From positions 3,894,646-3,958,645 of the forward strand of contig NC_087391.1 of the NCBI RefSeq assembly GCF_963675165.1: 64,000 nucleotides of DNA, read 5' to 3'. Below the pieces are notes generated by a model that had not been told where the DNA came from, did not search any database, and was given only the letters and a program-made list of their open reading frames with translations. Position 1 is the first letter of the stretch, and every line of letters begins with the position of its first letter. Source of the DNA: Halichondria panicea. Taxonomy: Eukaryota; Porifera; Demospongiae; Suberitida; Halichondriidae. The translations under genes and the position numbers were made by a program. Shown in pieces: positions 10,493 through 64,000 of the stretch.

Positions 10493-12132
10493 ATGTTTTG
10501 CGAGTACTGTGGTCTGGAGAAGAGGAGGAGAGAGCTACAAGGTCATATGCATTCTTGTGATAGCAGAACCGAGGTCTGTCAGCTGTGCTTTAGTAAAGTG
10601 AGACTACGTGATATGGAGGTGAGTTCTTGCTTGCATGCATTGGGCCATGTATACTACGTATGTTCATGCTGTGGTCTTGGCATACATGTGTATACAGGAA
10701 CATCAAACCATGAATTGTGAACGTATACGCACTGAACGTCAATGCACTCCGGAAAATTCCCCATCCTTCTACGCTTTGACTAGCCAAATTACTCAAACTG
10801 GGAATGAGAGACAGCAGCTTACAGGGAGTGAATGGGTAGACTCGCTACTTCCTCAGAATATGTCCTATATACAAACCAGTGCAGGTATATTATAAGAGAC
10901 TCTTTCAATTACAATTTTTGGAAAGGGCATACAGTAAACTATATACACACAGTATTTGTCCCCCTATAGGAGCTGCATTTTGCACATATGAGGATGACAT
11001 TGAACTGGCTCGCAGACTACAAGAGCAAGAAAACAGTAGGGGCAAAACTTTTAATTTGGACTACACTCTGGCGAAACAACTTCAGCAGGGAGAGACCCCG
11101 CATGCACACACTGCCTACAACGAAAGTGAACTTTTGCAGACGCTTCGGGCTGAAGAAAAAAAGCACAGAATTTGTGACTCTGATTTACAGCTAGCTCGCA
11201 AACTACAAGAAGAAGAAAATCTCAGAAACAAGATAAGTGAACCACGTCCAAGTACTGATGGTGACATAGCAATGGCTCTGAAACTACAGGAGGAAGAGGA
11301 CAAAATATCTAAACAGGAAGATGGCTCATCCTCAAAGCCACGTCCAACCATTGATAGTTACGTGCACCAAGTGGAACTGGCAACATCTGTATCAGTCCCT
11401 AATACTAGTAATGATATGGGAGACAGATATTTGGCAGAACAGCTCCAACTTCAACAGGCACAGCAACTAACTACTGACAATCAAACGAATACAAAAGTGG
11501 ATGATCCCATACAAAAACCTCCTGATTGGCAAAAGCAAAGCGACTCACGTACAACAGAAGTGTTTTCTGTAGCCCAAGGAAGTACTGAATGGACAAGAGT
11601 GGAGCAGAAGTTTAAAGCCACTTTAGCATATCAGATTGTGTCAATCTCTAGGATTCAGAATACATGGCTGTGGGAAAACTACTGCTTTCATCGAAAAAAG
11701 CTTCACCAGAAAAATAATGGGACTGTGAATGAAATAGAATTATTTCATGGTACTCGTCTTAATGATCCTAAATTGATCTACGAAGGAGAGCACGGTTTCG
11801 ATATGCGTTACAGCAATACAGGAATGTGGGGAATGGCCAACTACTTTGCTGTCAATGCTAGCTATTCGAATCGATATGCCTTTCGCACTCCGGATAACTG
11901 TAAAGAAATCTTTCTGGTCAAAGTGCTCACTGGGGAGAGCTACAGATGTGCTCCTAATAAAAGCCTTCGTAAGCCACCCGAGAAACCATTGGTGACTGGA
12001 TCTGCTGGAGGGAATGTGCTTTTCCCGAAGATGGATTATGATACTGTGACTGGTGACACGAATGGATCTCAAGTGTTCATGACTTATGACACTTACAAAG
12101 CTTATCCTGCTTATTTAATCAAGTACCGGTAA
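10493..12132 (+). CDS. TRAF-type zinc finger / MIU-like repeats / PARP catalytic domain protein
   Basis: Exons 10493-10618, 10698-10884 and 10970-12132 join in phase to 491 residues. Residues 1-50 hold two C2HC fingers (CEYC..HMHSC and CQLC..HQTMNC) like those of TRAFD1. Residues 110-270 carry repeated DxxLAxxLQxEE motifs (ELARRLQEQE, TLAKQLQQGE, LQLARKLQEEE, IAMALKLQEEE, YLAEQLQLQQ) resembling MIU/UIM ubiquitin-binding helices. Residues 300-491 are a PARP catalytic domain: H364 (FHGTR), Y396 (NYFA) and V473 where PARP1 has its catalytic glutamate, so the H-Y-hydrophobic triad predicts mono-ADP-ribosylation. The end, YDTYKAYPAYLIKY, is typical of PARP14/15-like enzymes. Inferred role: reading ubiquitin and attaching ADP-ribose, perhaps in innate immunity. 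Further 5' exons are possible because the open frame extends slightly upstream of the ATG. A decayed copy of the catalytic exon lies at 21.4 kb. Confidence 0.9.
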
Positions 12133-22710: not shown

Positions 22711-25009
22711 GAGGACAGCTGGACCAGCTTTTTCTTCCCTCTCTGGAGATATTAACCAGGATGACATCGCTTTGGAAGCACTCAAGTGAGCTATAAGCAA
22801 TTAGTATATTATGCATACAGGGGCTGGGGGTTGTATAGGACAGTGTTTGTTTTACATATGGAACTGTTTGTCAGCTTAAATGCTTGTTTACTATAGCCCC
22901 TGTGTACATTGTATACCTTGGCTCGGACGCTTAGCGTACACGAATTCCTGTTTCCATAGATGAAACTTCAAGTTGTCTCTTAGGTTGATCTGACATGCAC
23001 TTTATTGTACAGATTACTGGTGGATGGAGGAGTGAATTTGCTATCAATAGCCAACCCCCAGGTCTCCTCTCTAGTAACCACACAATTGGTGCAGCCAATG
23101 GTGCATACCATGGAAGCCTCTGGAATCCACTGGTTGGGGCTCAACGCCAAGTGTCACCACATTGCTGTTGTGGGCGGCCAGAGGGTGGGATTTATAGCAA
23201 TGTGTGCTGGTCACGGACAGTGTTTACAGTCTTCACAAACTCCGTTTGCTCCAGTAAAGTACACCTCTAAAGTAGCCACTTCCGTGGTGAACAACATAAA
23301 AGGGGTAAATAATATAGACTGCATGCATGGTTGCATTGAGAGAAATCCCCTATCATTTGTCACATTCCTAATTATACTCATGGTTCAAAAGCAATGAACA
23401 GAACCCTAGCATAACTATATGGAACTGTGTATTCATAGTATGGAGTTGAAGTGATGGTGGTGCTACTTTCCTGGGGAAGAGACAGTGGTACCTATGCAGG
23501 CGAAACAGTTCTACCTATCATCAGAAAATTGGCTCAGTTGGGAGTGAATGTGATTGTTGGATATGGACCCAACGCTGTCCAAGATCATGCCTACTTTGGA
23601 AGCACCCTTGTGATATTCTCTATGGGTAACCTATTGAGTTATGAGCCAGACACACCCTACTGCTGGAAAAAGGTTTGTAAGCTTATACCACCATATAGCA
23701 TATTATTTTCAAGGCACTACATTTTCACAGATATTACTTAACTAAACATTTCACCGATTTTATTTCAAGGATATAGATATTCAAATGACCACACCCCCAC
23801 AGTAGAGAAGTCTTTCAATACCGAAAGCAAACAATGATTCATAAATTTTCGAGGTTCAAAGTCGATCCGTGAAAACTGCGAATTCAAAATTTATTGCCTC
23901 AAAAATACCCTGCTGTACGATAATAGTATGGGCTATAAGTACTGCTAGAATAGGGCCAACTTTAAGGTATGCATTATTAGCATAGCTGGGCAGGGGGTTG
24001 CTCGTTTTTATACATTTAATTTGTGGAATGTACTGTTACAAGCCAAGTGCATAGATTAATAATTCTCTGCATTTCTGGCACAATCATGCATGCAGATCAA
24101 CATTAATTTACAGCATCGTTACTGTATTTACATGCAGGAGTCTGGGAAGTGGGTGTTTGACGATGCAAAGGAACATTGCAAAATAATTCATCCTTTAGCA
24201 CGAGAAAACCTCCTAGAGAGAGAGACACATACCAGGGTGTACAAACTGTACTTATCAAGGTATGAACCACCCAGTTTCTATACATGCAATCGATCTGTAT
24301 GATGTGTTATTCCTATGTTAGAGTGTTATTTTAATAAAAAGATTCCTCCGCCATCATTTTTATACCCGTGTATGTATAATTACAGTATAGACTCTCGTTA
24401 ATCTGGTCACCCTTGGGACAGTGCAGCTTGGCTGGAATAGTGAGGTGGACGCATTTCAGAAATAGCCGCGGCCAAAAAAACTACCCTACCTTAAATCTAA
24501 TGACTAATTTTGCGGTTCTATCTCCAGGATAAGGAATCATTGCTCTCAAGTGTAATCCAATTTTATCTGCCAAACCATACCCAAAACATATTATCCAGCC
24601 GTAACCTAGTTTGGGGCAGCCAGTATACGGAATAGCGAGCTCGAGTGGCCGCATTTCAGGGCAAGTTTTGTGCAGTAAACATCTAGCTAGCAATCTGTGA
24701 AACCAAATGGCCGGTATATCGAGCTGGCCGTACTTCAGAGAGCTGGAAGCGAGACTCTACTGTATATATAAACATGTTATGGAGCGTTTTCGTGTATATA
24801 GTTAATAATATTACGTAACACTTTTTACACTTCCATGCAGATCACAGCCAGCAATGGCTGAATACATCACTCTACCAATGAGTTTGGACAGCAACCCAAC
24901 AAGCAGTACCCACAATCTGAGAGCACCAATCACGCCTGACACAAATGAACACTGGACTACAGTGTGTGGTGCCTCTGATACAAACTGCCTATCATGCAAA
25001 CCTTTCTAA
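22222..25009 (+). CDS. CapA/PGA_cap-fold protein, type II membrane anchored, active-site residues apparently lost
   Basis: Exons 22222-22390, 22467-22785, 23013-23304, 23439-23672, 24138-24259 and 24841-25009 (TAA) join in phase to 434 residues; an in-frame ATG at 22186 would add 12. Residues 11-30 (SIVFVVLSVLLWAVDYLV) form a signal anchor. The rest follows the bacterial CapA (poly-gamma-glutamate capsule) metallophosphatase-like fold: LLVDGGVNLLSIANPQV, MEASGIHWLGLN, VEVMVVLLSWGRDSG, LGVNVIVGYGPNAVQDHAYF, STLVIFSMGNLL. The metal-site residues usual in the family, as I recall them, are replaced: ANNH is ANPQ, HWG is SWG, and G-H-x-PH is GYGPN. A non-enzymatic lumenal or extracellular role is therefore inferred. 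The two partial copies here show the gene duplicated locally. Confidence 0.82.
24387..24766. mobile_element. Tc1/pogo-type MITE (AGACTCTCGTTAATC ends)
   Basis: Starts TAGACTCTCGTTAATCTGG and ends GCGAGACTCTACTGTA, an imperfect inverted pair. The internal phrases CCGCGGCCA, ACCTTAAATCTAATGACTAA and GCCGCATTTCAGGG recur inverted at 32190-32345. It lies in the last intron of the CapA-like gene. It is noncoding. Confidence 0.6.
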
Positions 25010-27795: not shown

Positions 27796-30700
27796 ATGCC
27801 ACCTAAAGTAAGCTACTTGCATGTACTTGTACTAAATTGCATTGTACACATAGTCCATTGAAGGTAAATCAGGCATTGCTGTAATGAATTGCACAAAAAT
27901 CTGTCTCTACAATACATGCAAGCTTTTTTTTTTAATTGCTGCAAGCTATCTATACTGATCTGATAATCCCACTAGAAAAAATCTGGATCTGCAAAGAGCA
28001 AAGAAAAAAAGCTCAAATGGAAGCAAGTAAATGATTGCACACCTAACGTTGCATTGCACTCACCCTATGCTTTAATCAGGAGCAAGCCGAGGTAGCTGCG
28101 TCCCTCTCTAGAGTGAAGGTGGCCTATGATGTGAGTCGATCAGTGTTGTTCACTGTGTACGTGTGTGGGTGTATTATACTGTACTGTTCGTTATGTGTGT
28201 GGGTGTATTATACTGTACTGTTCGTTTCTTAGGAGGTGAACGAGTATATGGAGAGTCTACCTGCTTTCCAGAAATACTCTAGAAATGAGTAAGCATTTAA
28301 TGTTATGGTTTCTACAAGTTGATTCTGATCTGTTTTAGAATTTAGTACACATAACGTTAATTGTTGTCAACTGTAATTTTTGATACGTCTATGTGCTAAT
28401 GATTTCACACCACGTAGACTTGATGTGGCCGTCTCTCTTTACCGAATGGCAGACCTGACAAAGGACGACGTCAAGTGGGCCTTTGACCTGATGAAGGAGT
28501 GTGTGGAGGAGCTGTATGTTCTCATCACTCCTTTGTTGAGCACTGATTTACCCTTGTTCCTTATGTGCAGGTACGTCAGTGGTGGGTGGGGCTGGAACGA
28601 CAGGAAGAAGTGGGACGAGTTAACACACGACTCTGCATGGTGAGTGAATCAATTATTACTGAGATTCAACCATATAAACTAACAACTCAAATGGTGGATA
28701 TTTAACCACTGCTATAATGTGTCTACTTAATATATGCTTTTTATCTGTTTTACCTGCTCACAATGTGCCCAGAAAGCAGGTACAGAACTTATATAATACC
28801 CCTCTTCTCCCCCGGTATAGCTCAGCTAAAGCACAATAACTTGTACAGTAGCTCAACTAGGGCTCATTAATGTACAAGTGCTGAGCTTTTATTATAATCC
28901 TTTCCCGTTCAGCCGGCCGCACACAGTCTGGAACAGTTCCATCACTTTAGTTTGCTAGTTTGCATCTGAGCCCAACCCACCAAATTAGCTTGATGTTATC
29001 TCCGCCCCCAATGAAGTGGCTTGTAGAGATGGGCGTGGGTCAATGGCTGTGCACAAACTAACCATCGATTTTATGCCTTGCTGCTGCCTCGATGGAAGTA
29101 TGTGTGGCCTTTAAAAGCTGCACTCTGGTCAACTAAGCTGCTTAGCAAGCATGTAGCTATTGTAGAGCTTGTGTCCACTTGTGAAGTGCCTGTGTACACA
29201 AATGGCTTGCTGCTTCCTCTTCGAAAATATTCTATGGCTACCAAGATGGTCCAGAGGTTCTACCAATGGATACTACTCAGTCCTACATGCTGTATAGCTT
29301 GTTTTAAACCTTTTTTTTTTTTTTTAAGTGTCCTAATTGAACAGCTCAGCAGAACATCAAAGGATAATCGCATTCATGATACTATCCAATCTGCCACAGA
29401 ATCCAATATCATGCAACATTCACAAGTTGATAGCACGCTCCCTCCCAGATTGTTGTTGTAAAATTTACAACATTTTGAACGGTAAAGGGATACAGCTACT
29501 TACTATTACTACCATGTCCATGTTAAAAAAAGATCTTGTAGTGATTCAGAGTAATGGCCTGTGTACATAATTATGCTCTGGTCATATGTAGCCTAGACTA
29601 TAATATCATTGCCGGTTATAGTGAGAACGTAATTATTAGTGATTGATCGTTATGATGACTAAAAAAATGCTGAAAATTAACTAGCTAGAGCTACTAATCC
29701 TGCACTGTCATATTAATTTCATAGTCTACACATTCTATAGAGTTGCTACAGTACGACTCTGAAAGTCTTCCTGGTCTTATCAGTATCCTGGGAGAGTGCA
29801 TCATTAAGTCATGCCGCCCCGGGTCCTCATCATAGATGATAATTGTGATGTACCTCCACCCGCTACAGCTCTCCCCAAAATTCAACTCTTTGTTCCAGAC
29901 GGGAAATTTTGTCCCTGATATCACTTTAGTGCACTGTCTGTATCGAGTGTTCAATCTATTTACAGCCTCCACACAAGCGTACGGGTCTGGCTCGTTCCAC
30001 CAGCCGTCACTGTCTGGGAGGTGTTTGGCCTGAACAATCTTCACCTTTAGTATTCCCTTGTAACTTTCTTCACGCTTTTGACGAACCTACAATGTACATA
30101 AATGATTATTGCAGTTAGTGGGTAGTAATCATCGTTTGGTTTGTTTGCAACACATTTATTTTATAGAAATTACAATTTCCTAAGCCTTAACACATATCAT
30201 TGGATAATTATAGTGCATGCTTTGTTGTTATACCTTGTGTGAAGTAACTAACCTCTTGATGATCCACAATGTCTATGATATCAATTGTGGACAAGTCTTC
30301 GTTCATGGCTCTACTACTCCTGTCGTTGGATTCTCTTTGCTCTCGGCTCTCCTCACTTGTTGCAATAATGTTTAGTTGATTCTGTAGCTCTCTGTTACGA
30401 GCAATGGCTGAATTAGCTAATGGGGCAGCTAGTAGTAGCCACAAAGTCATTGTTAAAAGCATCTTATACTGAATATATGTAGTCTTACACTTACATTTAC
30501 CTTTTTAGCACATGCCATTTATATACCCAATAACAACTGTTGTTAAGGCTTCAGTGATAAACAACTTGCTACTGTGTACGTGTATGTGCATTTGAATCTA
30601 AACACCAGCTGTATACAAGCAAATACGTATGGTTTGTACGGCTCAACTTAATTCTATTCAGGCTTGCATATTATGGTCGTAGTGGTTGGTAATGCCATTC

Positions 30701-32569: not shown

Positions 32570-35500
32570 TGTTCCAGCTGTATAACTGCTTAACGGTTGC
32601 AATGCGACGAAAACTAACAGCATCTATAGGCTTCTAGCCACGATTTTGATTCGTGGGTTTGCAAACTAAAGCTTCTTTCCTGAGTTATGGTTAGTTTGAC
32701 TCACATGCATAGTGAAGGCTGTTGCAGTCTCTTAAAAATATTTCATAGCATCATCTGTTTGCATCATCTGTTCGCACAAACTTTCTATTCAGCTTATGAG
32801 TTAGCCTTGCACTAAAGCGCTAGCTGTTTGTTAGCTACAAGAGTCAGAAAAAACTACAAAGCAGCATGCACGTACACTGCTAACCTTCTATGGTTAATTA
32901 CATGTATTGCGCAAGCACATGCGTAGAATTTCTAATTGTAGCCCACCTACCTTAGACATACATGGTCATGTCAAACCACACAGTTTACATTACTACAAGT
33001 GTTTGTGACGTAGTGAGACAACACTGAATTTATATGGTGTGTATAGTAGTTGCTCACTCCCCTTCATGTACTCCTGATATAACCCACATTATTATTGAAA
33101 TGAAAGCTTTCGTTAATGTAAAATAACTATTATAAGCAACGTTTTTTGAAAGCTATTATCGCTTACCAGCACTGCTATATAGTTGGTGCGTTCCAAAAGC
33201 CTTTGGCTCAAAAAATCAAAGGTCAAAACATTCATACCCTCGCTTACAACTTGCACCTCGAGTGGTACATTTTAGAACTCAATACTATGGCTACAGTTTC
33301 CACTGCTTACAGTTATAAAACACTACTAGTGGGTACAGTTAAGAACCAGAGGAGGGAGGACACAATTAACCATAGGCACTATGTGGTGGGCGTGGAGTTA
33401 TTAAGAAAGAAAAAATGAAACGTTAAAAGCACTGAATCAACTGGACATTCTTGCATCTAATGGCAATGAAGAAAAGCAATATTTGGCAGTGGGAGTAACC
33501 ATCAGAATTTATCTCTGAGGACGAGGGCAAAGCCCCGAGGCCAAGGATGGTTTACGTTTGCCATAAATTCGAATGTTGTGGACAATAAGTGTTATATACC
33601 CACTTGAATGAAAAGTTGCTTGCTACCTAAGCTACCTCACCTTGGATACAACTAGCAAACAGTCTCAAAAACTATTGAAAACGAACAAAAAGCTTGAGCG
33701 TATAGCTTGTAGCCAGTCCTAAGCTTCTAGCTCCACGCACTAACTTGTCAATGTCCAAGCAGTGAGTCACACCCTTCCTCCAGCCTTCCTGGGTGTTTTG
33801 CGAGCCCCACCCATCTGTCCTGCCCTTGTCAACAAGTCAAGGCAAGGGAGTTTATGAAGAATGCAGGAGTTTATGGTAGTTAAACCCCACCCAGTTGCTA
33901 TGATACAGACCCCAAGTGGGGTATATTATACTGTTATGTCTTCATCATTTAGTGTAGTTGGACAAATCGCATGTTATAGGGTTGTTATGTATTACCCCTA
34001 GGCCAAGCTTTGTATAAGTAGGCAAAATGTCTCAGTATATATAGCTAGCAGTTCAATGACCGTTTCTGTCTCTTTGTCACAACAGAGAAACTCTCTTTGG
34101 CAGGAAGTCAAAAGCAAGCTGAACTGTTTGAGATATACTGTTCATATCATTAATTTCAAAACATTTATATGTTTGCTGCATGTTAATACGTAAGTATAGT
34201 TTTGTATAATTATATAGGTGTATATATTAACTATACTTCGTAATGGTCACAATTATTGTGCCTTTGAATAGTTAATTGTCTTGACCGTTAGAGAATTCAG
34301 TATGGGTGTAATTCTTCTTCTAATGGTTGAAGAGGTCTTATACCACCAGACGAAGAAGGTCGACGTGGAGGAGGAGGAGGATTGTACATGTACCGCTCAC
34401 ATCTATTCCCTACATAGAATTTTGGGCAGCTACAAGAAAAGCCACAAAATTGATCTCGACAGGTTCCTCTTACACAGGGATTCGAGCTGCAGTGATTTAC
34501 ATTTGCATCTTCAAGTCTGTAGTTGTAATCAACACATGGTGCGAACAACCTAGTGTTGGTAGTGCAACTAGGAGACACCCAAACTGTTTCTGTGCCAGTC
34601 ATATTGTCATCTCCACCATTGTCACTGTCGTATACTGTGATAGTGAAGTAGCGCCATCCTACACTGCTGTGTCCAAAATCTAGTTCCTGGTTCCAATATG
34701 GATTGCAAGTGCCTCTTTTAACTACAGTGCGCTTTTCTTGGCGATTGTTCGACTTATCGACAGCCACAACGACAGCGTAGGGGTCTGGCTCATCCCACCA
34801 TCCGTCAGTGTCTGGTAGACCCCTCGCTCGTATCATCTTCACCTTCAATGTACCTTTATAGCCAGGACTTCTTCTTAGGATAACATGATTCTGTTCTCCT
34901 GGAATGTTGAAATCGCCTTTGTCTAGTTGACTATTCAGTGCTTCGTTGCGACTGAGGGCCGGGGTAGCTTCTTCACCGATCACTAATACCGGGGTTGCTA
35001 TCACTAGCCACAGAGCAATAACAAGGGAGTACATCGCTGTAGTTAGTGTGTAGATCAAGCTGCAGTAGTGTGTAGATCAAGCTGCAGTAGTGTGTAGATC
35101 AAGCTGCTGGCTATAAAATGAGATGATTGTCCTTATATATAAACTTTCTGTCTTGAAAGCTAATAGGATCAAGTATTTTGTAGCATGTGTTCACTCAACC
35201 ACCACCTGGTAGACCACCATCATGGATTCACAACAACCTCAGAACCATGCAGTTTAACAATCAAGTACAGGTATAGTGGTGGCGTCTGAAATCTGTATCC
35301 ATTACTTTCAACCCTCTTTAAAGACACTTCACACGATTTATACGCCTGCTGTGGTCTGCAATGTAGGCAGCAACAGTTGAAATGATTGAGGCTGTTTTGT
35401 ATGGGATCTTTCTAACTTTCAGTTTTATAATCATGAACGCTCACTGTGTCCTATAGCTAGAACTGTATAACATGGCCTGCTGTATATGACCATGTTAGGT

Positions 35501-38500
35501 ATTGTATGATCGAGGTAGCCGTATTACATGTACCTTTTTCGATCATAATGACAAAACGAAAACACGTGTTTTCCAATCAAGGCAGTAAATTGCTACTATA
35601 TATAGTAGCAGGGTGTCATACAGGGGGGGGAGGGGAGATATCCCCCCTAGCTCCAATCCCCCCCCCCCCCTTTCAATTATGACTGTGTGTTTAGCTGGGT
35701 ATTGAAATAACAGTTGACCTTTTTTTAGCAACATTTTCTGGTTACTTTTCTCATTTCCCCCCTCTACTTCAAAATCCTGTATGACACCCTGAGTAGTGTG
35801 CTACATTATAGTATATAAGCTGCTGCTGGTCATGAATGTCCGTATATATAAACGTTCTACTTTAGTTTTGAACTTTGAATATACCGTATTCTAGGTTTCG
35901 AATGTAATTAATTGTGAATAATACGTACTGTACATGCAAGCCTGGTTGCGTTTTCTAATTGTATGCTCCTTGCAATTAACTTATGTAAAAACCAATCGAA
36001 ACCCATGTATGCGGTATATTGAGCTATTTTGTGTTTGTTTACATCTAATCACCAATTGGTACGTAAGACCACCATAAATTGATACGTAAGACCACCATAA
36101 AATAGAGCTACAACCATTTAATTATTAGTGCAGTTGTACATGTGGCGTCTGAGCGTCTTGTTGTCTAACTCTGTCATACTACGTTGTAAAACGCCCACAT
36201 CTCAAGTGGTTGTAACTGCACTCAAAACAGTGTGGTTAATTACATGTATTGTGCAAGCACATGCGTAGAATTTCTAATTGTAGCCCGCCTACCTTAGACA
36301 TACAGTTTGTGACGTAGTGAGACAACACCGAATTTATATGGTGTGTATAGTAGTTACTCACTCCCCTTCATGTACTCCTGATATAACGCATTATTGAAAT
36401 GAAAGCTTCGTTAATGTAATATAAGCAACGTTTTTTTGAAAGCTATTAACGCTTGCCAGCACTGCTATATAGTTGGTGCGTTCCAAAAGCCTTTGGCTCA
36501 AAAAGTCAAAGGTCAAAACATTCATACCCTCGCTTACAACTTGTACCTCGAAGGTATATTTAGAACTCAATACTATGGCTACAGTTTCCACTGCTTGTTC
36601 TAAAACACTACTAGTGGGTACAGTTAAGAACCAGAGGGAGGGAGGACACAATTAACCTTAGGCACTATGTGGTGGGCATGTCCAATAACGGAGTTATAAA
36701 GAAACAAAAGATGAAACGTTCAAAATTGTGTCTTCCCCTCTGGTTAACAACTACGACTATAATTTTACTCTATAATGCACGTGATCAAACGCTAGTGACT
36801 TTTTGACCCTGTCGAACCAACTCTGGTGGCTTATTCCTCATACATGCTATACCACTCCTGCTATTTGTAAGACATGCTATAAGGCTAATACAGCCACACT
36901 TCAAGCCAAGGGTCAAAGGTTTAGTACTTCAGTGCTTTTGACTAGTTGTGCCTCGAGGAATAGTCTCATGAAGGATACGGTAAAGCTGACTGTGTTGTTC
37001 CAGCTGTAAATGCTCAACGGTTGCAATGCGACAAAACTAGCAGCTTCTACAGGCTTCTAGCCACGTTCTTTTGGATTTTGATTCGTGGATTAGCAAACTA
37101 AAGCTTCTTTCTTGAGTTATGGCTAGTTTTACTGACAGTGAAAAGGCTGTTGCAGTCTCTTCACAACATTTTTATGGCATCATCTGTTCTCACAACTTTC
37201 TATTCAACTCATGAGTTACCCTTGCTCTAAAGCACTAGCTATTTGTTAGCTACAGAGTCAGAAAAGAGCTGAAAAGCTGCATGCCTACACTGTACTGCCA
37301 GAAGCAGCCCTTGTAAACTCTGACCTCATTGCAGATCCACCCCCTTTTTATGCAAAACTTATTAACATTGTAGATCTACAAGCTTCTATACTTGAAGATC
37401 CATTCATCAAGCCATCAGATAGACTTCTGTTTCCATTCAGCTCCTCTTTTATAATGACTATGTGTTTATTGTCAACAATTGCATAATAACATTATACAAA
37501 GCAAACTACTGTATAAGCTCTAATTTAAGGCGCCACATTAAAATAATTACGCTGGTAAAAATGGCCATATTAGGAGGTTGGAAAAGCCGTTTTTTACCTG
37601 CAATTAGAAGGCGGCCCTCTAAAAAAACGCCATCCAGCCTCAAAACTAATTTTCCACCTCTGAATACAGCTACCTTTACCAGCGTAATTATTTTAATGTG
37701 GCGCCTTAAATAGAGCTTATACAGTACTTACCTCTTCTATAACACTCTAATACTTTTTGAGTTAAAGTAAAACATGGCGAGAGACATTAGCACATGCAGC
37801 GCAGCTTAATTGCACAACTCTTTCTATTCAGGAGTACATATAATTCTAGTGATACCGTTATGTCTCATTTGTTGTAGCTGGACAAATCGTATGTTAGGGG
37901 GTGTTGTTATTTATTACCCCTAGGCCAAGCTTTTGTATAAAGGAAAGTAGGCGACCGTTTCTATCTTTGGCACAACAGAAAATTGGCAGGAAGTCAAAAG
38001 CAAGCTAAACTGTTTGAGCATACTGTTCACATCATAATTTCAGGACATTGTGTGTTTGCTGCATGTTAATATGTAAGTATAGTAGTATATGCTAAAGGAA
38101 TACTAACTGGTCACAATTATTGTGCCTTTGTCTTGACCGCTAGAGAATTCAGTCCAAACACTTAATGTGTTAAGGAATAGGTCGTGTACCGCCAGAGGAA
38201 GGAGGTCGAGGAGGTCGAGGTGGATTGTACCGATCGCATCTCTTTCCAGAGTAGTTTCTTGGGCAGCTACAATAGTAGTCACAAAACCTGTCTTGACAAG
38301 TTCCTCTTACACAGGGATTTGGGTTGCAGTTATTTACATCTTCAAGTCTGTAGCTGTAGTCAACACATCGTGTGAGACTGTAGCAAAACCTCCTCGTGTG
38401 AGTAGAACAACTAGGGTATACCCAAATAGTCTGTGTGCCAACCATCTTATCATCTCCACCGTTGTCACTATCATATATTGTGATAGTGAAGTAGCGCCAT

Positions 38501-41500
38501 CCCTCATTTCTATTTCCAAAGTCTAGTTCCTGGTTCCACTGTGGATTGGTAGTGCCACTTTTAACTCCAGTGCGCTTTTCGCGGCGATAGTTTGTCTTAT
38601 CCACAGCCACAACAACGGCATAGGGGTCCGGATCATTCCACCACCCGTCAGTATCTGGTAGATTCCATGCTTGTATCATCCTCACCTTCAGTGTACCTTT
38701 ATAACCAGGGCTTGCCTCAGGGCAGTTATAAATTCTGTTTATCTGCTTAATATCACTGCTGCTGAGACTTGAACTAGGTGCTATTGAATTTGATGATTCT
38801 TTAGGAGTAATTGTTTTACGTCCATTTTTACTAAAGGCAGTATCAGTATAGTGCATGATTGATCGGTAATCATAGGGTTCTCCCTGATAGTCGACGTTCT
38901 GGCGTTTTTTGAAGTTGTGACTTTTTCCACTTTGTACGTTTTCCAAGTGTATATTCACATGACGATCTCTGTCAGGCCTGCTCTGTTCGTGCCATAGTCC
39001 AATAGCATGTCCAATCTCATGTATAATGACGTGCTCTGAGTTGCACCTTCCTGGCAAAGTTATAGTTTGTATTCCGCCTTTCCTACCAATAGAATCAGAG
39101 GAACAACCGCTACCTTGAGCCGTGAATTGAATGCGGTTAGCAACACCTGTTCTTCTGAACAGTAAACATGTTTCTCTTTCATAAACAGTGATTGCACTTA
39201 TAATCTTGCTTCTAAGAGATGAACTGACACTCCAATGAAAGTTATAGTTGATTATCCCACCAGGCCATCTCTTCTCATTAATAGCTCCACGTTTTTCTCG
39301 CACCTTATACATATAAACAGCAATGTCAATGTACTTGGTAAAACATATATAAGTTCACTTTACCTAATCCTAACACTAACTTCCATTAATAGGCTTGTAA
39401 ATTTTGACATTAAGATGTACTTTTGTGCAAATAAATTTATTCCAGACTACCAATGGCTCACATTTTCTGTTGGTGGATGATATGCTTCCATAAACTGTTC
39501 TCGTGGAATGTTGAGATCACCTTCAAAATATTCTGGATTTTCCAAGAGTTCACCCGTGTTGGATAGTGGGTCCATCTCTCCACTCCCACTGCCAAATATC
39601 GCTTCGTTATCACTTTCTCCATTGCCGTTAGATGCAAGAATGTCCAGTTGACTATTCAGTGCTTCGTTGCGACTGAGTGCCGAGGTAGCTTCTTCATCGA
39701 TTGATAAGACCGGGGTGGCTATCACTAGGGCGGCTGCTACTAGCCACAAAACGATAGCACGTGTCTTCAAGTCAAGAGAGTACATCGCTCTAGTGATGTA
39801 TAGATGAAGCTGCTGGCTATGATTATGAGATGAATGTCCTTATTTATATACTTGTGAAACCTTAGGTTTGAGCCTTGTGTTGGGAAACAGGTTGTGGCAC
39901 ATGTGTTGTTGCATGCATGCACCCAGCCACCAATTGGTAAGAGGTATAACCCTAATTAATTACAAAAGCCTCAGAACACTTTCACTAGTGCAGTGGTGGC
40001 GTCTGAAATCTGTAGTCCATTAGTTCAACCCTTCAAAGGCTCTGCACAGACCTACGCCTGCAATAATCTGGCAATGTAGAGCAGCTGCTGTTTAAAAAAG
40101 TGTGGCTACTTTGTAATGGGATCATAGATTTGCAGATTGATCATGCATGAGCTTTCACAGTTCTACAGTTAGATAACATGGTGTTCTGTATTTTTCTCTT
40201 GAGTATTATCTGTACGTGAACCATGTATTGTGTGAAACAAGCATTATAATTTTATTTACTAATGATGATGATTAAAATACTACTTTCTAAATGTTTTTTA
40301 AACCACACTTATGTCACCATTAATTGATCTCATTGGTCAACAGCTATAGGATAAATAACATACAGCCCCAGAGATGCACAGTTTTCAAGGTTTTTTTTCT
40401 TCATTTGTTCAAGAAAGTAAGCATAAAAAAAAAGGGCCATGCATGCTTGATGGTACTAAGACTTCAAAACAACGGCAGAAACACGGAAGCTGCTCTCCAA
40501 CAAGATGGCTAAACCTCCATCAAAGCAATAACAAGGGAGTACATCGCTGTAGTTAGTGTGTATCTAGATCAAGCTGCTGGCTATAAAATGAGATGATTGC
40601 CATAAACTTTCTGTTTTGAAAGCTAATAGGATCAAAGTATTTTGTAGCATGTGTTCATAACTCAACCACCACCTGGTAGACCACCATCATGGATTCACAA
40701 CAACCTCAGAACTAGATGCAGTGGTGGCGTCTGAAATCTTTATCTATTACTTTCAACCCTCTTCAAAGACACTTCACACGATTATACGCCTGCTGTGGTC
40801 TGCAATGTAGAGCAACTACAGTTGAAATGATTGTGGCTGCTTTGTATTACTATCTTTCCAACTTTCAGTTGTATTGTAAGTTTTCACTGCCCTATACGTA
40901 GCTAGTATTACAACCAGGAGTACATAAAGGGAAGTAAGTAACTACTATACAGCCCATACAAACCTGTTGTTGTAAACTGCACATTTTAAGTGGCTGTACA
41001 AACGAACTATGGTTAATAAATTACATGTATTGCGCAAGCACATGCGTAGATTTTCCAATTGTAGCCGCCTGCCTTAGACATACATACATGGTCATGTCAA
41101 TCCACACAGTTTACATTACTACAAGTGTTTGTGACGTAGTGAGACAACACTGAATTTATATAGTGTGTATAGTAGTTGCTCACTCCCCTTCATGTACTCC
41201 TGATATAACGCATTATTGAAATGAAAGCTTTCGTTAATGTAAAATAACTATTAGGATTCCTAACTGGATCTCTATGTTATTAGTATAGCTGTCTATACCT
41301 GCTATTTAGATTCGTATACACTACACTTTTTATAATTTATAACACGTGGCTGACACTGTCACCTGACGTGCGCGAGATATATAGATAATAAAACGACAAT
41401 CAGTGGTGACGTAAGTATAACTATATACATCAATGAATACATTACAATTATAAGCAACGTTTTTTGAAAGCTATTAACGCTTACCAGCAGTGCTATATAG

Positions 41501-44500
41501 TTGTGCGTTCCAAAAGCAAAAAGTCAAATGTCAAAACACTCATACCCACACTTACAAAGGTACATTTTAGAACTCAATACTATGGCTACAGTTTCCATTG
41601 CTTGTTCTATAGAGCTGGGGCCACTCTACTGTCTGCCCCCATTGACAACTTTACGGTGGAGTGTAAATACATTCGAATTGCAGCTTGATACGATTTTTGA
41701 TATTTCTCTTGTGTTTTCGACCACTGATGAGCTGGCAATGCGACGAAAACTAACAGCTTCTATAGGCTTCTAGCCACGATTTTGATTCGTGGGTTCGCAA
41801 ACTAAAGCTTCTTTCCTGAGTTATTAGTTTGACTCACATGCACAGTGAAGGCTGTTGCAGTCTCTTCAGAATCAGGGTTTTGCAGAATTTTTGCAACAGG
41901 GCTAAACAGACACGACAATGACTTCCATATATGGAAGTCAACTGCTGACTTATAATAATATTATAGTACAAGTCCAGGTTGAAAGATGTCCCGTGAGCCT
42001 AAGAGAGCATCAGCTTATTCACAAGATTTAATTAAAGTGGTGGATGGTGCACCAGGTGAAAATGCAGGGCAAATATTGTTGTGAAGTTGGTGTGTGCAGA
42101 ACTAGAACTGTTGGCATATAGCTGTGTATTGACTGACAATTATTATCATTATCAGTTGATGTTAGTACCATTTGGAGGTTTTTGCGTTCTTCAAAATATA
42201 ACTCGTGACCAGACAGAAGATGGTTCTTGTTGCAAAGCAAAGAAGTGTGAGGAGCATACCTTCAAGACATGCAATGGTTATCCTGAAATGTTGATTTTGG
42301 TTGATGAGACAGGCTGACAGAAAAAATTGCCAGAGGAGATTTGGTTACAATATAACGCCTAAGGGGCAAGCCTCCTGTCTTTAAGCTTATCAATATTAGC
42401 CAATACCACTGTTTGGAGGGTGTTTCGTTTATCAACTGTTCCGGTATCATTGAAAAGAGCAGCAGTTCTTCAGACATTCAAAATCTCACCAACTTCCCCC
42501 CTTTTGTGCTTTGTCAACTCCATGCAACTTAGCTTGAATCACTCTGGATCTGTCAATGTATTCTGCAGTACTGCATGCATAGTTACTAGAATGATGTCAT
42601 GTAATTGATATGTGGGCAGGGCCATCTGATGCGCATGCTTAATGCTGAGGAAAAGTGATGACCTTTTTTTTAGTGAATAAACTTTAGCGCCTATGCTTCA
42701 ACAATTTGAGCCCTGCCCTTCCCAAAATCCTGGATACGCCGGGCCATCTGATGCGCATGCTTAATGCTGAGGAAAAGTGATGACCTTTTTTTTAGTGAAT
42801 GAACTTTAGCGCCTATGCTTCAACAATTTGAGCCCTGCCCTTCCCAAAATCCTGGCTACGCCACTGTCAGTCATACGACTGAGTACCTGAATGCAAATTT
42901 TAGGGGGGGAGGGGGGGATTGGAGCCAGAGGGGGATAATCATATATCCCTGTATACTGCATACATGTGCATGTACACAAAATATTATAGTCAGCAGTTGA
43001 CGTCCATATATGGAAGTCATATTGCTGTGTCTGTTTAGCCCTGTTGCAAGGATCTTGCAAAAACCCTGTAAAACACTACTAGTGGGTACAGTTAAGAACC
43101 AGAGGAGGGAGGACACAATTAACCTTAGGCACTAACGTTTTTTTTCTTTGGCCATGTGGTGGGCGTGTCCAATAACGGAGTTATAAAGAAAGAAAAGATG
43201 AAACGTTCAACGAATTTTATTAAAAGGTGCCTAATGTTAATTGTGTCCTCCCTCTTCTGGTTAAGAACTACCTGACTATAATTTTACTATAATGCACGTG
43301 ATCAAACGCGAAATTGCAATTAGTGACTTTTTAGCCATGTCGAACCACCTCTGGTGGCTTATTCCTCATTTTTACACCACTCCTGCTATTTGTAAGACAT
43401 GCTATAAGGCTAATACAGCCACACTTCAAGCCAAGGGGCAAAAGATTAGTACTTCAGTGCTCTTGACTAGTTGTGCCTCGAGGCGTAGCCGCATGAGGAT
43501 ACGATAAAGCTGACTGTGTGTGTGCATGTGCGTGCGTGTTCCAACTGTAAATGCTCAACGATTGCAATGCGACGAAAACTAGCAGCTTCTATAGGCTTCT
43601 AGCCACGTTCTCTTGGATTTTGATTCGTGGATTAGCAGCCCTTGTAAACCTCATTGCAGATCCACCCCCTTTTTATGTAAAAATTTCTACATTGTAGATC
43701 TACAAGCTTCTATACTTAAAGATCCATTCATCAAGCCATCAGATAGACTTATGTTTCCATTCAGCTCCTAATGACAATGTGGTTTATTGTCAACAATAAT
43801 AACAACATAACATAATATTATACAAAGCGAACCTCTTGTAATACTTTTGAGCAAAAGCAAAACATGACGAGAGACATTAGCACAGCGCAGCTTTCACAAC
43901 TCTTTCTATTCAGGAGTACATATAATTCTGTTATGTCTTTCATTTGTTGTAGCTGGACAAATCGTATGTTTAGGTTTGTTATTTATTACCCCTAGGCCAA
44001 GCTTTTGTATAAAGGAAAGTAGGCGACCGTTTCTATCTTTGGCACAACAGAAAATTGGCAGGAAGTCAAAAGCAAGCTGAACTGTTTGAGCATACTGTTC
44101 ACATCATAATTTCAGGACATTGTGTGTTTACTGCATGTTAATATGTAAGTATAGTTTATACATAAATGTGTATGCTAAAGGAATATTAACTATACTTCGT
44201 TGGTCACAATTATTGTGCCTTTGTCTTGACCGCTAGAGAATTCAGTCCAAAAACTTAATGTGTTAAGGAATAGGTCCTGTACCACCAGAGGGATAAGGTC
44301 GAGGTGGATTGTACCGATCGCATCTCTTTCCAGAGTAGTTTCTTGGGCAGCTGCAATAGTAGTCACAAAACCTGTCTTGACAAGTTCCTCTTACACAGGG
44401 ATTCGGGTTGCAGTTATTTACATTTTCAAGTCTGTAGCTGTAGTCAACACATCGTGTGAGACTGTAGCAAAACCTCCTCGTGTGGGTAGAACAACTACGG

Positions 44501-47500
44501 TATACCCAAATTGTCTGTGTGCCAACCATCTTGTCATCTCCATCGTTGTCACTATCATATATTGTGATAGTGAAGTAGCGCCACTCCTCATTTCTATTTC
44601 CAAAGTCTAGTTCCTGGTTCCACTGTGGATTGGTAGTGCCACTTTTAACTCCAGTGCGCTTTTCGCGGCGATAGTTTGTCTTATCGACAGCCACAACAAC
44701 GGCATAGGGGTCCGGCTCATTCCACCACCCGTCAGTATCTGGTAGATTCCATGCTCGTATCATCCTCACCTTCAGTATACCGTTATAACCAGGGCTTGCC
44801 TCAGGGCAGTTATACATTCTGTTTATTTGTCGAATATCACTGTAACTGAGACTTGAACTAGGTGCTATTGAATTTAATGATTGTTTGGGAGTAATTGTTT
44901 TACGCCCATTTATACCAAAGGCAGTATCCTTATAGTGCATAATTGATCTGTAATCGTAGGACTCTCCCTGATAGTCAACATTCTGACGTTTTTCAAAGTT
45001 GTGACTCCTTCCACTTTGTATGTTTTCCAAGTGTATGTTCACATGATAATCTCTGTCAGGCCTGCTTTGTTCGTGCCACAGTCCAATAGCATGCCCAATC
45101 TCGTGAATAATTGTTTTAATGGATTGGCATCCACTTGGCAGAGTTATAGTTTGTATTCCGCCTTTCCTACCAATAGAATCAGATGAACAACCGCTACCTT
45201 GAGCCGTAAATTGAATGCAGTTAGCAACACCTACTCTTCTGAACAGTAAACATGTTTCTCTTTCATAAACAGTGATTGCACTCATGATCTGGCTTCTAAG
45301 AAATGAACTGACACTCGAATGAAAGTCATAGTTAATTATCTCACCAGGCCATCTCCTCTCGTTAATAGCTCCACGTTTTTCTCGCACCTTATACACATAA
45401 ACAGCAATGTCAATGTACTTGGTGAAACACCAATTACTAACAGTTAAATTAATTCTAACACTAATAGGCTTGTAAATTCTGACATTAAGATGTACTTTTG
45501 TGCAAATAAATTTCTTCCAGACTACCAATGGCTCACATTTGCTGCTGGTGGATGATATGCTTCCATAAACTGTTCTCGTGGAATGTTAAGATCACCTTCA
45601 AATTATTCTGGATTGTCCAGGAGTTCACCTGTGTTGGATAGTGGGTCCATCTCTCCACTCCCACTGCCAAATATTGCTTCAGAATCACTTTCTTCATTAC
45701 CGTCAGATGCAAGAATGTCCAGTTGACTATTCAGTGCGTCATTGCGACTGAGTGCCGAGGTAGCCTCTTCATTGATTGATAAGACCGGGGTAGCTATCAC
45801 TAGGGCGGCTGCTACTAGCCACAAAACGATAGCACGTGTCTTCGAATACATCGCTCTAGTGATGTATAGATGAAGCTGCTGGCTATGATTATGAGATGAA
45901 TGTCCTTATTTATATACTAGTGAAACCTTAGGTTTGAGCCTTGTGTTGGGAAACAGGTTGTGGCACATTTGTTGTTACATGCATGCACCCAGCCACCAAT
46001 TGGTAAGAGGTATAACCCTAATTAATTTACAAAAGCCTCAGAACACTTTCACTAGTGCAGTGGTGGCGTCTGAAATCTGTAGTCCATTAGTTCAACCCTT
46101 CAAAGGCTCTGCACAGACCTACGCCTGCAATAATCTGGCAATGTAGAGCAGCTGCTGTTTAAAAAAGTGTGGCTACTTTGTAATGGGATCATAGATTTGC
46201 AGATTGATCATGCATGCATGAGCTTTCACAGTCCTACAGTTAGATAACATGGCGTTCTGTATTTTTCTCTGAGTATTATCTGTACGTGAACCATGTATTG
46301 TGTGAAACAAGCATTATAAGACTAATGATGATTAAAATACTACCTTCTAAATATGTTTAAACCACACTTATGTCACCATTAATTGATCTCATTGGTCAAT
46401 AGCTATATAGGATAAATAACATACAGCCCCAGGGATGCACAGTTTTCAAGGTGTTTTTTCATTTGTTCAAGAAAGTAAGCATAGAGAAAGGTAGCCTCGA
46501 TTCCAGGCCGCGATGCGCATGCGTGTACATTACCCCCAAAAGGGGGTAATCCGTGTATTTGTGGATACTGTCAGTAAAATAAACCGTATACTATTTGTAT
46601 TCTGATTTTATAGTCCGTTACATAGAGGTATTGTGCAAAGATGACTGAGTTCTTACTCCCTTTATTGTATCAAGCCAAGTCTCTACTTAACGACACCCTA
46701 CTACGGATGTTATAGGAAAGGCATGATGTGTTCCTATGGGTCCCCTGATGAGGCTGTGGTAATATGGACCAGGCAAGTCTTCTGCTACTAAATCTTGCCT
46801 TTATGTTTGACAAGAAGTCATTGCTGAAGATAAAGAAGCTAATGATGACTCCTGAAAGCTTTTAATAAGCTTTAACTCGACACTCAGGAAGTTATTCACT
46901 CAAGATCTACTGATGTATTAAAGAGTCCACCACTCTTCCTAGCTGGAAGCTCTAGCTGTCTGGGAGGCTTTCTTGAACTGTCTCTTTGATAAACAGAGCT
47001 AGAAGAAGCAACACTGCTGCAGCATAATTATTCTACTTTGATTAGTGTCTCTGAAAGCTGCCATTGTGGTCACATTGTCATACATATTCTTCCCTTTTGT
47101 AACTTTGTCCGTTTTTTTACAATTTGTATGATGAAATTGTTGTCAATTATTTCGCGCATGCGCATACAAGGTATACCAGGCCGCCTTTCTCTTCGCCTTT
47201 CTCTTCGCGGCCTGGAATCGAGGCTAAGAGAAAGGAGCCATGCTTGACGGTACTAAGACTCCAAAACGACGGCAGAAACACGGAAACTGCTCTCCAACAA
47301 GATGGCTAAACCTCCATAGGTCAATGGGCGTGGTTTAGACACATTTTAACCAAGAAGGACCAAGGAAGCTCTTGAGTATCTGTAGGAGTCAACGTGTTAC
47401 TCAACTAGCTCTTTGACGGCTGCAAAATCCGGCATATAGTCTTGTTTTTTCGCAGTCTGTATTGTGGATTGAATTGTTGCTAGGGGGAGGTCCTTTTATA

Positions 47501-62697: not shown

Positions 62698-63605
62698 GTT
62701 AGGTTATGATAATTATGAATATATGCACCTCCATATATACCAGTAAACTACTCAAGGTACTGTGTGAGCACGATTGTTATGGCTATGGGGACAATAGCAG
62801 GAGTACCACAGGACAGGTGGACAACCCACACTTTAATTGACAGCTGCAATTACCACACAACAGCAAAAGTCCCACACATTCAGCTCATTGTATTAACACC
62901 CCCACTATACACATTGTGAATGCTGCATGGCTACTGCAAGCTGTTGTACCTATCAACACTAGCTCCTTGTATACACTGTGAATGTTTACACACGTATACA
63001 CAGTTGCATGGTTGTATATACATGTATGTATGACTCAGAATTCAGTAGGTGGGGGCACAGATTATTTCATAGCGTGGGAAAAAATAACTAAAAACTCGCA
63101 ATGAGCTTTAAAAGGGGATGAAAAACATTGCTGTGGTTCCATACAAGGAAGTTTCAAGGATATGTGAGACAATACATTGATGTGAATAACTGAGTGGGTT
63201 TAAAATAAGGTTTTAATTGGTGGTGGTTTCACTATGAATTCCCTTAGAGTGAGAATGTATACCCCTTGAAAACAGGTTGTAATTTCAGTATTTTGTGTAC
63301 ATGTAGTAGAAACGACATGTAGTAGAAACGATTTCACTTTGGGTATATACATTGTACATTGTAGTACTCTCCATGTATTTTCTACCAAGTCTGATCAAAC
63401 TGACCCGGATCAGATACTCTACGCTGTTCTCTGCAATGAGCCTAAACCTAAGCGTCATTATGCAAGGATTGAAATTAAGTTTGCTACTCTCACTTTGCTA
63501 CTCCCAGCTCTCAGCCCTATAATGGATAATTCCCTTAATTTATATAAGGTGTATAAGTGGTGCCAGTAACCTTACAACTCAAAGGCAGTTCTACAGTAAG
63601 TTAGA

Positions 63606-64000
63606 GTAGGGGATTACGCCAGACACATAGGGCAGCACCCCTAGAGAGTAGGGGACTACACCAGACACATAGAGCAGCACCCCTAGAGAGTAGGGGACTA
63701 CACCAGACACATAGGGCAGCACCCCTAGAGAGTAGGGGACTACACCAGACACATAGGGCAGCACCCCTAGAGAGTAGGGGACTACACCAGACACATAGGG
63801 CAGCACCCCTAGAGAGTAGGGGACTACACCAGACACATAGGGCAGCACCCCTAGAGAGTAGGGGACTACACCAGACACATAGGGCAGCACCCCTAGAGAG
63901 TAGGGGACTACACCAGACACATAGGGCAGCAACCCCTAGAGAGTAGGGAACTACACCAGACACATAGGACAGCACCCCTAGCAAGAGAGTAGGGAACTAC
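63606..64000. repeat. 42-bp minisatellite, about nine copies, running off the window
   Basis: Unit TAGGGGACTACACCAGACAC plus ATAGGGCAGCACCCCTAGAGAG, repeated from 63606. Copies differ by a few bases; one has an extra A at about 63931 and the last full one an insertion CAAG. Since 42 is a multiple of three, two minus-strand frames stay open (SLGVLPYVSGVVPY repeats), but no gene context supports translation. CCCCTAGAGAGTAGGGG is an internal palindrome. Confidence 0.95.

What the first reader, a model, noticed from the sequence alone, without database searches (positions are those of the whole stretch)
38170..39785. Astacin protease fused to a perforin-type C2 and an EGF domain
The zymogen parts are all visible: signal peptide, FEGD Asp switch, REKR furin-type site, HExxHxxGxxHExxR zinc site and Met-turn. 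They are followed by a C2 domain with the W..DPY and DSDNGGDD acidic clusters of secreted perforin-like C2 domains, then EGF. I know of no described astacin with a C2. This suggests a calcium-triggered, membrane-placed protease system and is my best candidate for an undescribed system here.
Basis: partly seen in the sequence, partly recalled or inferred. Interest (0 to 1): 0.85.

Follow-up and report, generated by a model that had tools for sequence, protein, structure and literature searches.

The report
Secreted astacin protease with C2 domain
A secreted animal (probably sponge) zinc protease of the astacin family carries a C2 domain of the kind that binds membranes with calcium, an accessory domain that a recent review of astacins does not list, and it belongs to a small gene family rather than being a one-off.

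Summary
Window 38170-39785 (minus strand) is a two-exon gene for a 485-aa secreted zymogen: signal-like N-terminus, FEGD, REKR, astacin domain (Pfam 1.5e-54), C2 (4.1e-14) and a C-terminal EGF-like module that is below Pfam's cut-off here. It is not a chance fusion: I count 13 loci in the genome where an astacin domain is followed by a C2-homologous region, one of them (L001) a single ORF reading pro-astacin-C2-EGF-C2. Five of the 13 keep the complete acidic calcium-loop pattern; six have lost it; two were not scored. Beside the gene lie a tandem relative with a premature stop and two neighbours that keep signal and C2 but have lost the protease. A C2-only model has perforin C2 as top Foldseek hit, but other C2s tie by Z, and several beat perforin by sequence. 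Best reading: a furin-activated astacin held on anionic membrane by its C2. 'Calcium-triggered' is unlikely: perforin's C2 binds calcium at 0.1-0.4 mM and seawater holds about 10 mM (recalled). No paper found describes the combination. New variant of a known kind; lipid binding, activity, expression and occurrence in other animals are untested.

The parts
39462..39785 (-). Gene A exon 1: signal peptide (about 39702-39785, end placed by eye) and most of the propeptide, with FEGD motif at 39516-39527
39304..39461 (-). Gene A intron, phase 0, GT..AG (inferred)
38170..39303 (-). Gene A exon 2: REKR site, astacin, C2, EGF-like module, Pro-rich tail, stop
39289..39300 (-). REKR furin-type site, next to GAINEKRWPGG
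38719..39270 (-). Astacin catalytic domain (Pfam 1.5e-54); zinc site 38977-39021, Met-turn SIMHY 38848-38862
38344..38706 (-). C2 domain (Pfam 4.1e-14; the Pfam match covers its first 92 residues); CBR1 38620-38655, CBR3 38449-38475
38230..38340 (-). EGF-like module (six Cys; below Pfam cut-off in this copy)
44263..45387 (-). Gene B exon 2: astacin-C2-EGF, 89% identical to A
45537..45851 (-). Gene B exon 1 by comparison with A; in-frame TAA at 45603-45605 just before FEGD, so this copy is broken in the assembly
34297..35034 (-). Protease-less neighbour: signal-like start + propeptide remnant + C2 + EGF-like in one ORF; astacin domain absent
29694..30086 (-). Protease-less neighbour, exon 2: VRQKR followed directly by C2; calcium pattern kept, no EGF match
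30208..30462 (-). Open frame that holds the probable exon 1 of the C2-only neighbour (ATG 30460-30462, signal-like; frame closes at 30208); its splice donor was not fixed

Best explanation
Gene A encodes a secreted astacin metalloprotease whose C2 domain holds it on anionic or phosphatidylserine-exposing membrane surfaces. Steps: (1) secretion by signal peptide [sequence; not tested]; (2) latency by the FEGD aspartate switch [motif present, function inferred]; (3) removal of the propeptide at REKR by a furin-like convertase, freeing a catalytic domain with a complete astacin zinc site [motifs present, cleavage inferred]; (4) calcium ions bound by CBR1 and CBR3 aspartates, with a Trp pair (GWW) at the loop tip placed to enter a bilayer [residues shown, binding inferred by analogy with perforin]; (5) proteolysis restricted to proteins at or near that surface, the EGF-like module acting as spacer or contact [inferred]. 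Since calcium outside the cell should already saturate such a site, calcium is a constant requirement; the likely switches are release from the secretory pathway, convertase cleavage and exposure of anionic lipid. The fusion is an established gene family with gene birth, protease loss and calcium-site loss.
For: Pfam and PDB matches for astacin and C2. Complete catalytic motif set. L001 carries pro-astacin-C2-EGF-C2 in one ORF: Astacin 1.6e-52, two C2 stretches (2.9e-21 together), EGF exactly at cut-off. 13 loci with astacin followed by a C2-homologous region: A and B, L001-L005, three copies in L006, L007, L008, L009. Six acidic loop positions are invariant in the 8 sequences of A4 (8 of the 13 calcium-type C2s; 32-75% identity to the first); 6 of 6 when 19 of 118 positions are invariant has chance 8e-06, a post hoc figure. 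Purifying selection: dN/dS 0.30 for A against B exon 2, 0.28 for A and 0.37 for B against the 34.3 kb C2-EGF. C2-only model with mean pLDDT 74.8 has perforin C2 as top Foldseek hit.
Against: No lipid binding, activity or transcript was tested. 6 of the 19 C2s scored for the loop pattern lack it, all six attached to astacins, so calcium-dependent membrane binding cannot be the role of the whole family. The CBR1 loop is the least confident part of the model (pLDDT under 50 at residues 23-26). The full exon-2 model failed (mean pLDDT 43.6), so the arrangement of C2 and protease is unknown. C2 domains also bind proteins (recalled). The A-B dN/dS is blurred: B is broken, and its C2 end is far closer to A than its astacin end (dS 0.07 against 0.31).
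Confidence: 0.55

Rival explanations
1. The C2 is a calcium-stabilised structural or protein/glycan-binding module that positions the protease on matrix or partner proteins, not on lipid.
For: 6 of the 13 astacin-C2 loci have C2s without the calcium pattern and 2 more were not scored, yet L006c, L007 and L009 keep an open astacin-C2 exon. The 2023 review lists many extracellular accessory domains of astacins such as CUB, EGF and MAM (PMC9848320, section 5 part 1); that these act by protein contacts is recalled.
Against: In A, B and L001-L003 the acidic loop pattern and at least one Trp at the CBR1 tip are kept, and the six acidic positions are invariant where much else has diverged.
Confidence: 0.27
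2. A calcium- or pH-gated effector stored in acidic granules and switched on by release, in the manner proposed for perforin; used in defence or self/non-self reactions.
For: Perforin's calcium affinity falls at pH 5.5 (human KD 1.54 mM against 0.38 mM; PMC10400287, passages). Tandem gene family with losses and degenerate copies.
Against: Another paper finds that perforin still binds membranes through its C2 at acidic pH with 1 mM calcium (PMC11850619, passages), so pH gating of C2 binding is not clear-cut even there. No evidence for granule storage here. A furin-type site fits constitutive secretion (inference). The four MACPF matches of the genome lie 210 kb or more from the nearest C2 match listed.
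Confidence: 0.09
3. An ordinary digestive or matrix-remodelling astacin in which the C2 has little role and the family is decaying.
For: Several copies are broken: B (TAA), L002 (two stops), L004 (TGA), L005, L006a and L008 (frame breaks), L006b (frame break and stop); L003 lacks an ATG at the expected place and reads FERD.
Against: A, L001, L006c, L007 and L009 look open in the exons read. The 34.3 kb gene lost the protease but kept signal and C2-EGF under constraint against A (dN/dS 0.28).
Confidence: 0.09

Closest known systems
BMP1/tolloid proteases
   Same: Best PDB sequence match to the catalytic domain (6.7e-39); furin-type site and EGF module (recalled for BMP1)
   Different: No CUB domain found in A by Pfam; C2 instead
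Meprins and other astacins with accessory domains (CUB, MAM, MATH, PLAC/PLAT, ShKT, SRCR, Ig and others)
   Same: Astacin domain plus C-terminal accessory domains; the listed PLAC/PLAT domain (PS50095) is also a lipid-binding beta-sandwich (recalled)
   Different: C2 is absent from the domain list of PMC9848320 (Figure 1 legend); no MAM or MATH found in A
Perforin-1, and the fish C2 protein SmC2P1 (named in PMC10400287; that it is PDB 3w56/3w57 is recalled)
   Same: Extracellular C2; top Foldseek hit 4y1s (E 1.1e-05, 26% identity); Z 11.7, rmsd 2.6, 106 aligned (3w56: Z 11.3, rmsd 2.5, 106 aligned); an EGF module next to the C2
   Different: No MACPF domain; protease instead; order C2-EGF here, EGF-C2 in perforin
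Gla-EGF-protease clotting factors
   Same: Works alike: calcium-dependent lipid-binding module, EGF and protease in one secreted protein (recalled)
   Different: Unrelated lipid-binding fold and protease class; only an analogy

Membership tests
Astacin family (M12A) | Pfam Astacin over its cut-off | tested here: met
   185 bits against 22.5
Astacin family (M12A) | HExxHxxGxxHE zinc site with family Glu, and SIMHY Met-turn (as described in PMC9848320) | tested here: met
   HEIGHAIGLWHEQSR, SIMHY
Astacin family (M12A) | Signal peptide and propeptide with Asp switch | tested here: met
   Hydrophobic N-terminus and FEGD by sequence; meaning of FEGD recalled; no signal-peptide predictor was run
Astacin family (M12A) | Proteolytic activity; new N-terminus after cleavage | not testable with these tools
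   Needs the protein
C2 domain | Pfam C2 over its cut-off | tested here: met
   53.1 bits against 22
C2 domain | C2 fold | tested here: met
   Model pLDDT 74.8, pTM 0.73; the listed Foldseek and VIA rows are C2 domains or proteins that hold one
Calcium-binding C2 | Acidic residues in CBR1 and CBR3 | tested here: met
   DTDGWWNDPDPY, YDSDNGGDD
Calcium-binding C2 | Calcium-dependent lipid binding | not testable with these tools
   Needs an assay
Perforin-type C2 | Closer to perforin C2 than to other C2s | tested here: inconclusive
   Top by Foldseek, tied by Z, behind several single C2 domains by sequence
Perforin (MACPF) | MACPF domain | tested here: not met
   No MACPF match in A by Pfam; the four MACPF matches of the genome lie on other contigs
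BMP1/tolloid | CUB domains | tested here: not met
   No CUB match in exon 1 or exon 2
Meprin | MAM and TRAF/MATH domains | tested here: not met
   No such match in exon 1 or exon 2
EGF domain (Pfam PF00008) | Pfam EGF over its cut-off | tested here: not met
   14.7 against 21.5 bits in A, so called EGF-like only; met in paralogue L003 (32 bits) and just reached in L001 (21.5)

The most novel reading that the evidence does not exclude
The four-gene cluster (two astacin-C2-EGF genes, one of them broken in this assembly, one C2-EGF gene and one C2-only gene, the last two without protease) is a two-part surface system: C2-borne proteases act on membrane-bound targets, while their own protease-less paralogues occupy the same lipid sites and limit or mark where cleavage happens.
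Probability: 0.12. Interest if true: 0.68.

Novelty: new variant of a known kind. Interest (0 to 1): 0.45.

Why it matters
Extracellular proteases are usually targeted by CUB, MAM, Gla or transmembrane parts (recalled). An astacin that carries its own C2 would be a direct way to confine proteolysis to exposed anionic membrane in an early-branching animal. The family also offers a natural series (calcium-type C2, degenerate C2, protease-less C2) in which the role of the C2 can be tested.

Tried and rejected
Chance fusion or misassembly: rejected. The order recurs at 13 loci on four contigs (C15, C5, C2, C13) and stands in one ORF in L001.

Perforin relationship through MACPF genes: four MACPF matches in the genome, each 210 kb or more from the nearest C2 match listed, whose list is a lower bound.

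Structure of astacin plus C2 together: the model from four window sequences failed (mean pLDDT 43.6) and was not used. A C2-only model was used instead.

Relatives elsewhere: genome contigs (14 pattern hits) and viral contigs (4 pattern hits) gave no confirmed relative. These are prokaryote and virus collections, so this says little. No animal protein collection was available; public sponge proteomes may well hold the architecture under automatic annotation.

Trees: FastTree on astacin domains put the 8 no-C2 astacins used into one group (support 0.86), but deep nodes are weak (0.40-0.54), so a single fusion is likely, not shown. Left out of the astacin tree: L005, L006b and L020. Left out of the C2 set: L005 and L008.

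Papers (held open-access library, no supplements): astacin + C2 domain + sponge, 0 papers; astacin + C2 domain, 6 papers, passages of 2 of 6 seen and unrelated, the other 4 seen as listing only; astacin + Amphimedon, 12 papers, passages of 4 of 12 seen, the rest as listing; PF01400 + PF00168, 1 paper, where the two accessions stand in unrelated rows; Peptidase M12A + C2 domain, 0 papers; broader searches, listings only, 20 of 689, 15 of 107 and 12 of 52 papers shown.
Full report
What is there. The finding's coordinates are right. On the minus strand an ATG at 39783-39785 opens exon 1 (39462-39785), followed by a phase-0 intron (39304-39461, GT..AG) and exon 2 (38173-39303, TAA at 38170-38172). 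The spliced protein has 485 residues: a strongly hydrophobic N-terminus, FEGD at 87-90, REKR at 110-113, then GAINEKRWPGG and a complete astacin domain with HEIGHAIGLWHEQSR and SIMHY. Pfam gives Astacin 1.5e-54 and C2 4.1e-14; the EGF-like module scores 14.7 bits, below its cut-off of 21.5, but has six cysteines in order and matches single EGF modules in the PDB (factor IX, 1.2e-4). Exon 1 matches no Pfam family. No stretch after residue 40 looks like a transmembrane segment (best 19-residue hydropathy 0.65), so the protein should be soluble and secreted.

A family, not a single gene. The window lies in a 131.5 Mb genome of 39 contigs. No tool names the organism. Astacins, introns and at least 213 SRCR matches fit a sponge, since PMC10855680 reports massive SRCR expansion in the sponge and the sea urchin (title and passages), but this is inference. 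Astacin matches: 98 at E up to 0.001, counted exon by exon and including weak fragments. C2 matches: 74. Searching with gene A's exon 2 gave 56 matches. I cut out 20 regions and with the window count 13 loci where an astacin domain is followed by a C2-homologous region: A and B in the window; L001, L002, L003; L004 and L005; three tandem copies in L006; L007, L008; L009. The evidence is uneven. A, B and L001-L003 have clear Pfam C2 matches. L004 (0.097) and L009 (0.0021) are below Pfam's cut-off, and L007 and L006c gave no Pfam C2 match; L005, L006a, L006b and L008 were not put to Pfam one by one. A local BLAST at 1e-3 found the C2 in L004, L005, L007, L008 and L009 but in none of the L006 copies; these rest on the genome search, where gene A aligns through the C2 (to residue 308-325), and on the alignment. 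Nine other fetched astacin regions (L012-L020) showed no C2 in that same BLAST, a test that also missed L006; one search lists no C2 there. Most of the other astacin places were not fetched. L001 is the cleanest proof: one open frame with signal-like start, FEGD, RIERR, astacin (1.6e-52), C2, EGF (at cut-off) and a second C2.

The C2 domain. 13 of the 19 C2 domains that I scored keep the pattern D.D...DPY in CBR1 and D.D...D in CBR3; 6 of 19 (L004, three of L006, L007, L009) do not. L005 and L008 were not scored. Of the 13 with the pattern, 12 belong to the window cluster, L001-L003 and L010, and one is L011, a separate EGF-C2 protein. In alignment A4 (8 of those 13; B, L002a, L002b, L003b and L010a left out) the six loop aspartates are among 19 invariant columns; drawing six of six by chance among 118 profile positions has probability 8e-06, a post hoc figure. 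A C2-only model from four window sequences has mean pLDDT 74.8 and pTM 0.73, weakest in CBR1. Foldseek ranks perforin C2 first (4y1s, E 1.1e-05; 4y1t, 2.9e-05). VIA-align gives perforin 4y1s Z 11.7 (rmsd 2.6, 106 aligned) against CAPS 11.8 (2.9, 109), PLC-beta3 11.6 (3.0, 109) and cPLA2 11.4 (3.9, 117), which is a tie. By sequence perforin (0.002) lies behind several single C2 domains (1wfj 3.4e-07, myoferlin C2A 1.5e-05, 7as6 2.2e-05) and behind synaptotagmin-1 (8.7e-08, two C2s summed; its better single domain has 0.011). The strand order, starting right after the protease and ending with the CVDYSYRLE strand, fits the so-called type II arrangement of perforin and cPLA2 (recalled; inference).

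The neighbourhood. Four related genes lie in a row on the minus strand. B (44263-45851) is 89% identical to A in exon 2 but has a TAA in exon 1 just before FEGD. Between A and B dS is 0.31 in the astacin part and 0.07 and 0.12 in C2 and EGF, which suggests recent exchange at the C2-EGF end. At 34297-35034 a single ORF keeps a signal-like start, part of the propeptide, C2 and EGF-like module but lacks the protease; DNA alignment with A jumps from the propeptide to the C2, and C2-EGF is under constraint against A (dN/dS 0.28). At 29694-30086 an exon begins VRQKR, the counterpart of VREKR in A, and runs straight into a C2. So in two neighbours the protease is gone and the C2 kept. Elsewhere L008 has HKLGH in place of HELGH and a frame break in its C2; L002, L004, L005, L006a and L006b carry stops or frame breaks; L003 has no ATG at the expected place and reads FERD. 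The family is gaining and losing genes.

How it most likely works. Shown: domain content, motifs, calcium-type loop residues, constraint. Inferred: secretion, latency by the aspartate switch, convertase cleavage at REKR, calcium binding, membrane binding, local proteolysis. For perforin the high-affinity KD at pH 7.4 is 101 uM (mouse) and 380 uM (human), and half-maximal lysis needs 92 and 842 uM calcium (PMC10400287, passages). Seawater calcium is about 10 mM (recalled), so outside the cell a similar C2 would be loaded throughout. The triggers would be release, cleavage, or exposure of anionic lipid on damaged, dying or foreign cells. A low-pH granule that holds the C2 off until release is a rival, but PMC11850619 (passages) finds that perforin still binds membranes through its C2 at acidic pH with 1 mM calcium.

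Known and new. The astacin and C2 families are textbook. A 2023 review lists the accessory domains of astacins (Figure 1 legend: CUB, EGF, MAM, MATH, PLAC, ShKT, SRCR, Ig and others) without C2 (PMC9848320, section 5 part 1 of 2 read; the term 'c2 domain' occurs 0 times in its main text). The paper searches found no description of the fusion; they cover only the held open-access library without supplements, and of most papers I saw the listing alone. Public protein databases may list such proteins under automatic annotation; that could not be checked. I rate it a new variant of a known kind.

Noticed in passing
window 45603-45605: In-frame TAA in exon 1 of the tandem copy B, just before FEGD; the C2-EGF end of B is far closer to A than its astacin part (dS 0.07-0.12 against 0.31), which looks like gene conversion.
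   Followed up: partly
window 34297-35034 and 29694-30462: Two protease-less relatives that keep a signal-like start and the C2 beside the proteases; the second keeps a VRQKR site directly before the C2.
   Followed up: partly
L008, 1245-2360 (+): Astacin paralogue with HKLGH in place of HELGH: the catalytic Glu is lost, so a likely pseudoprotease; its C2 also has a frame break.
   Followed up: no
L004 1030-2022 (-) and L005 967-1961 (-): Near-identical neighbouring copies broken at the same spot in SRPDRD, one by a TGA and one by a frame break.
   Followed up: no
L011 1302-1958 (+): Separate EGF-C2 protein with a signal-like start and calcium-type loops; possible source or relative of the astacin C2.
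   Followed up: no
window 23439-23738 (+): Open frame matching the bacterial capsule-synthesis family PGA_cap (1.1e-09) in an animal genome; a possible old transfer.
   Followed up: no
window 10840-12129 (+): Open frame with a PARP catalytic domain (2.4e-15) and a charged, repeat-like N-terminus.
   Followed up: no
window 63594-63996: Repeat array open in three frames, by eye a minisatellite rather than a gene.
   Followed up: no
G000, C3:4.78-5.01 Mb: Dense cluster of astacin exons with no C2 match listed nearby; accessory domains not determined.
   Followed up: no
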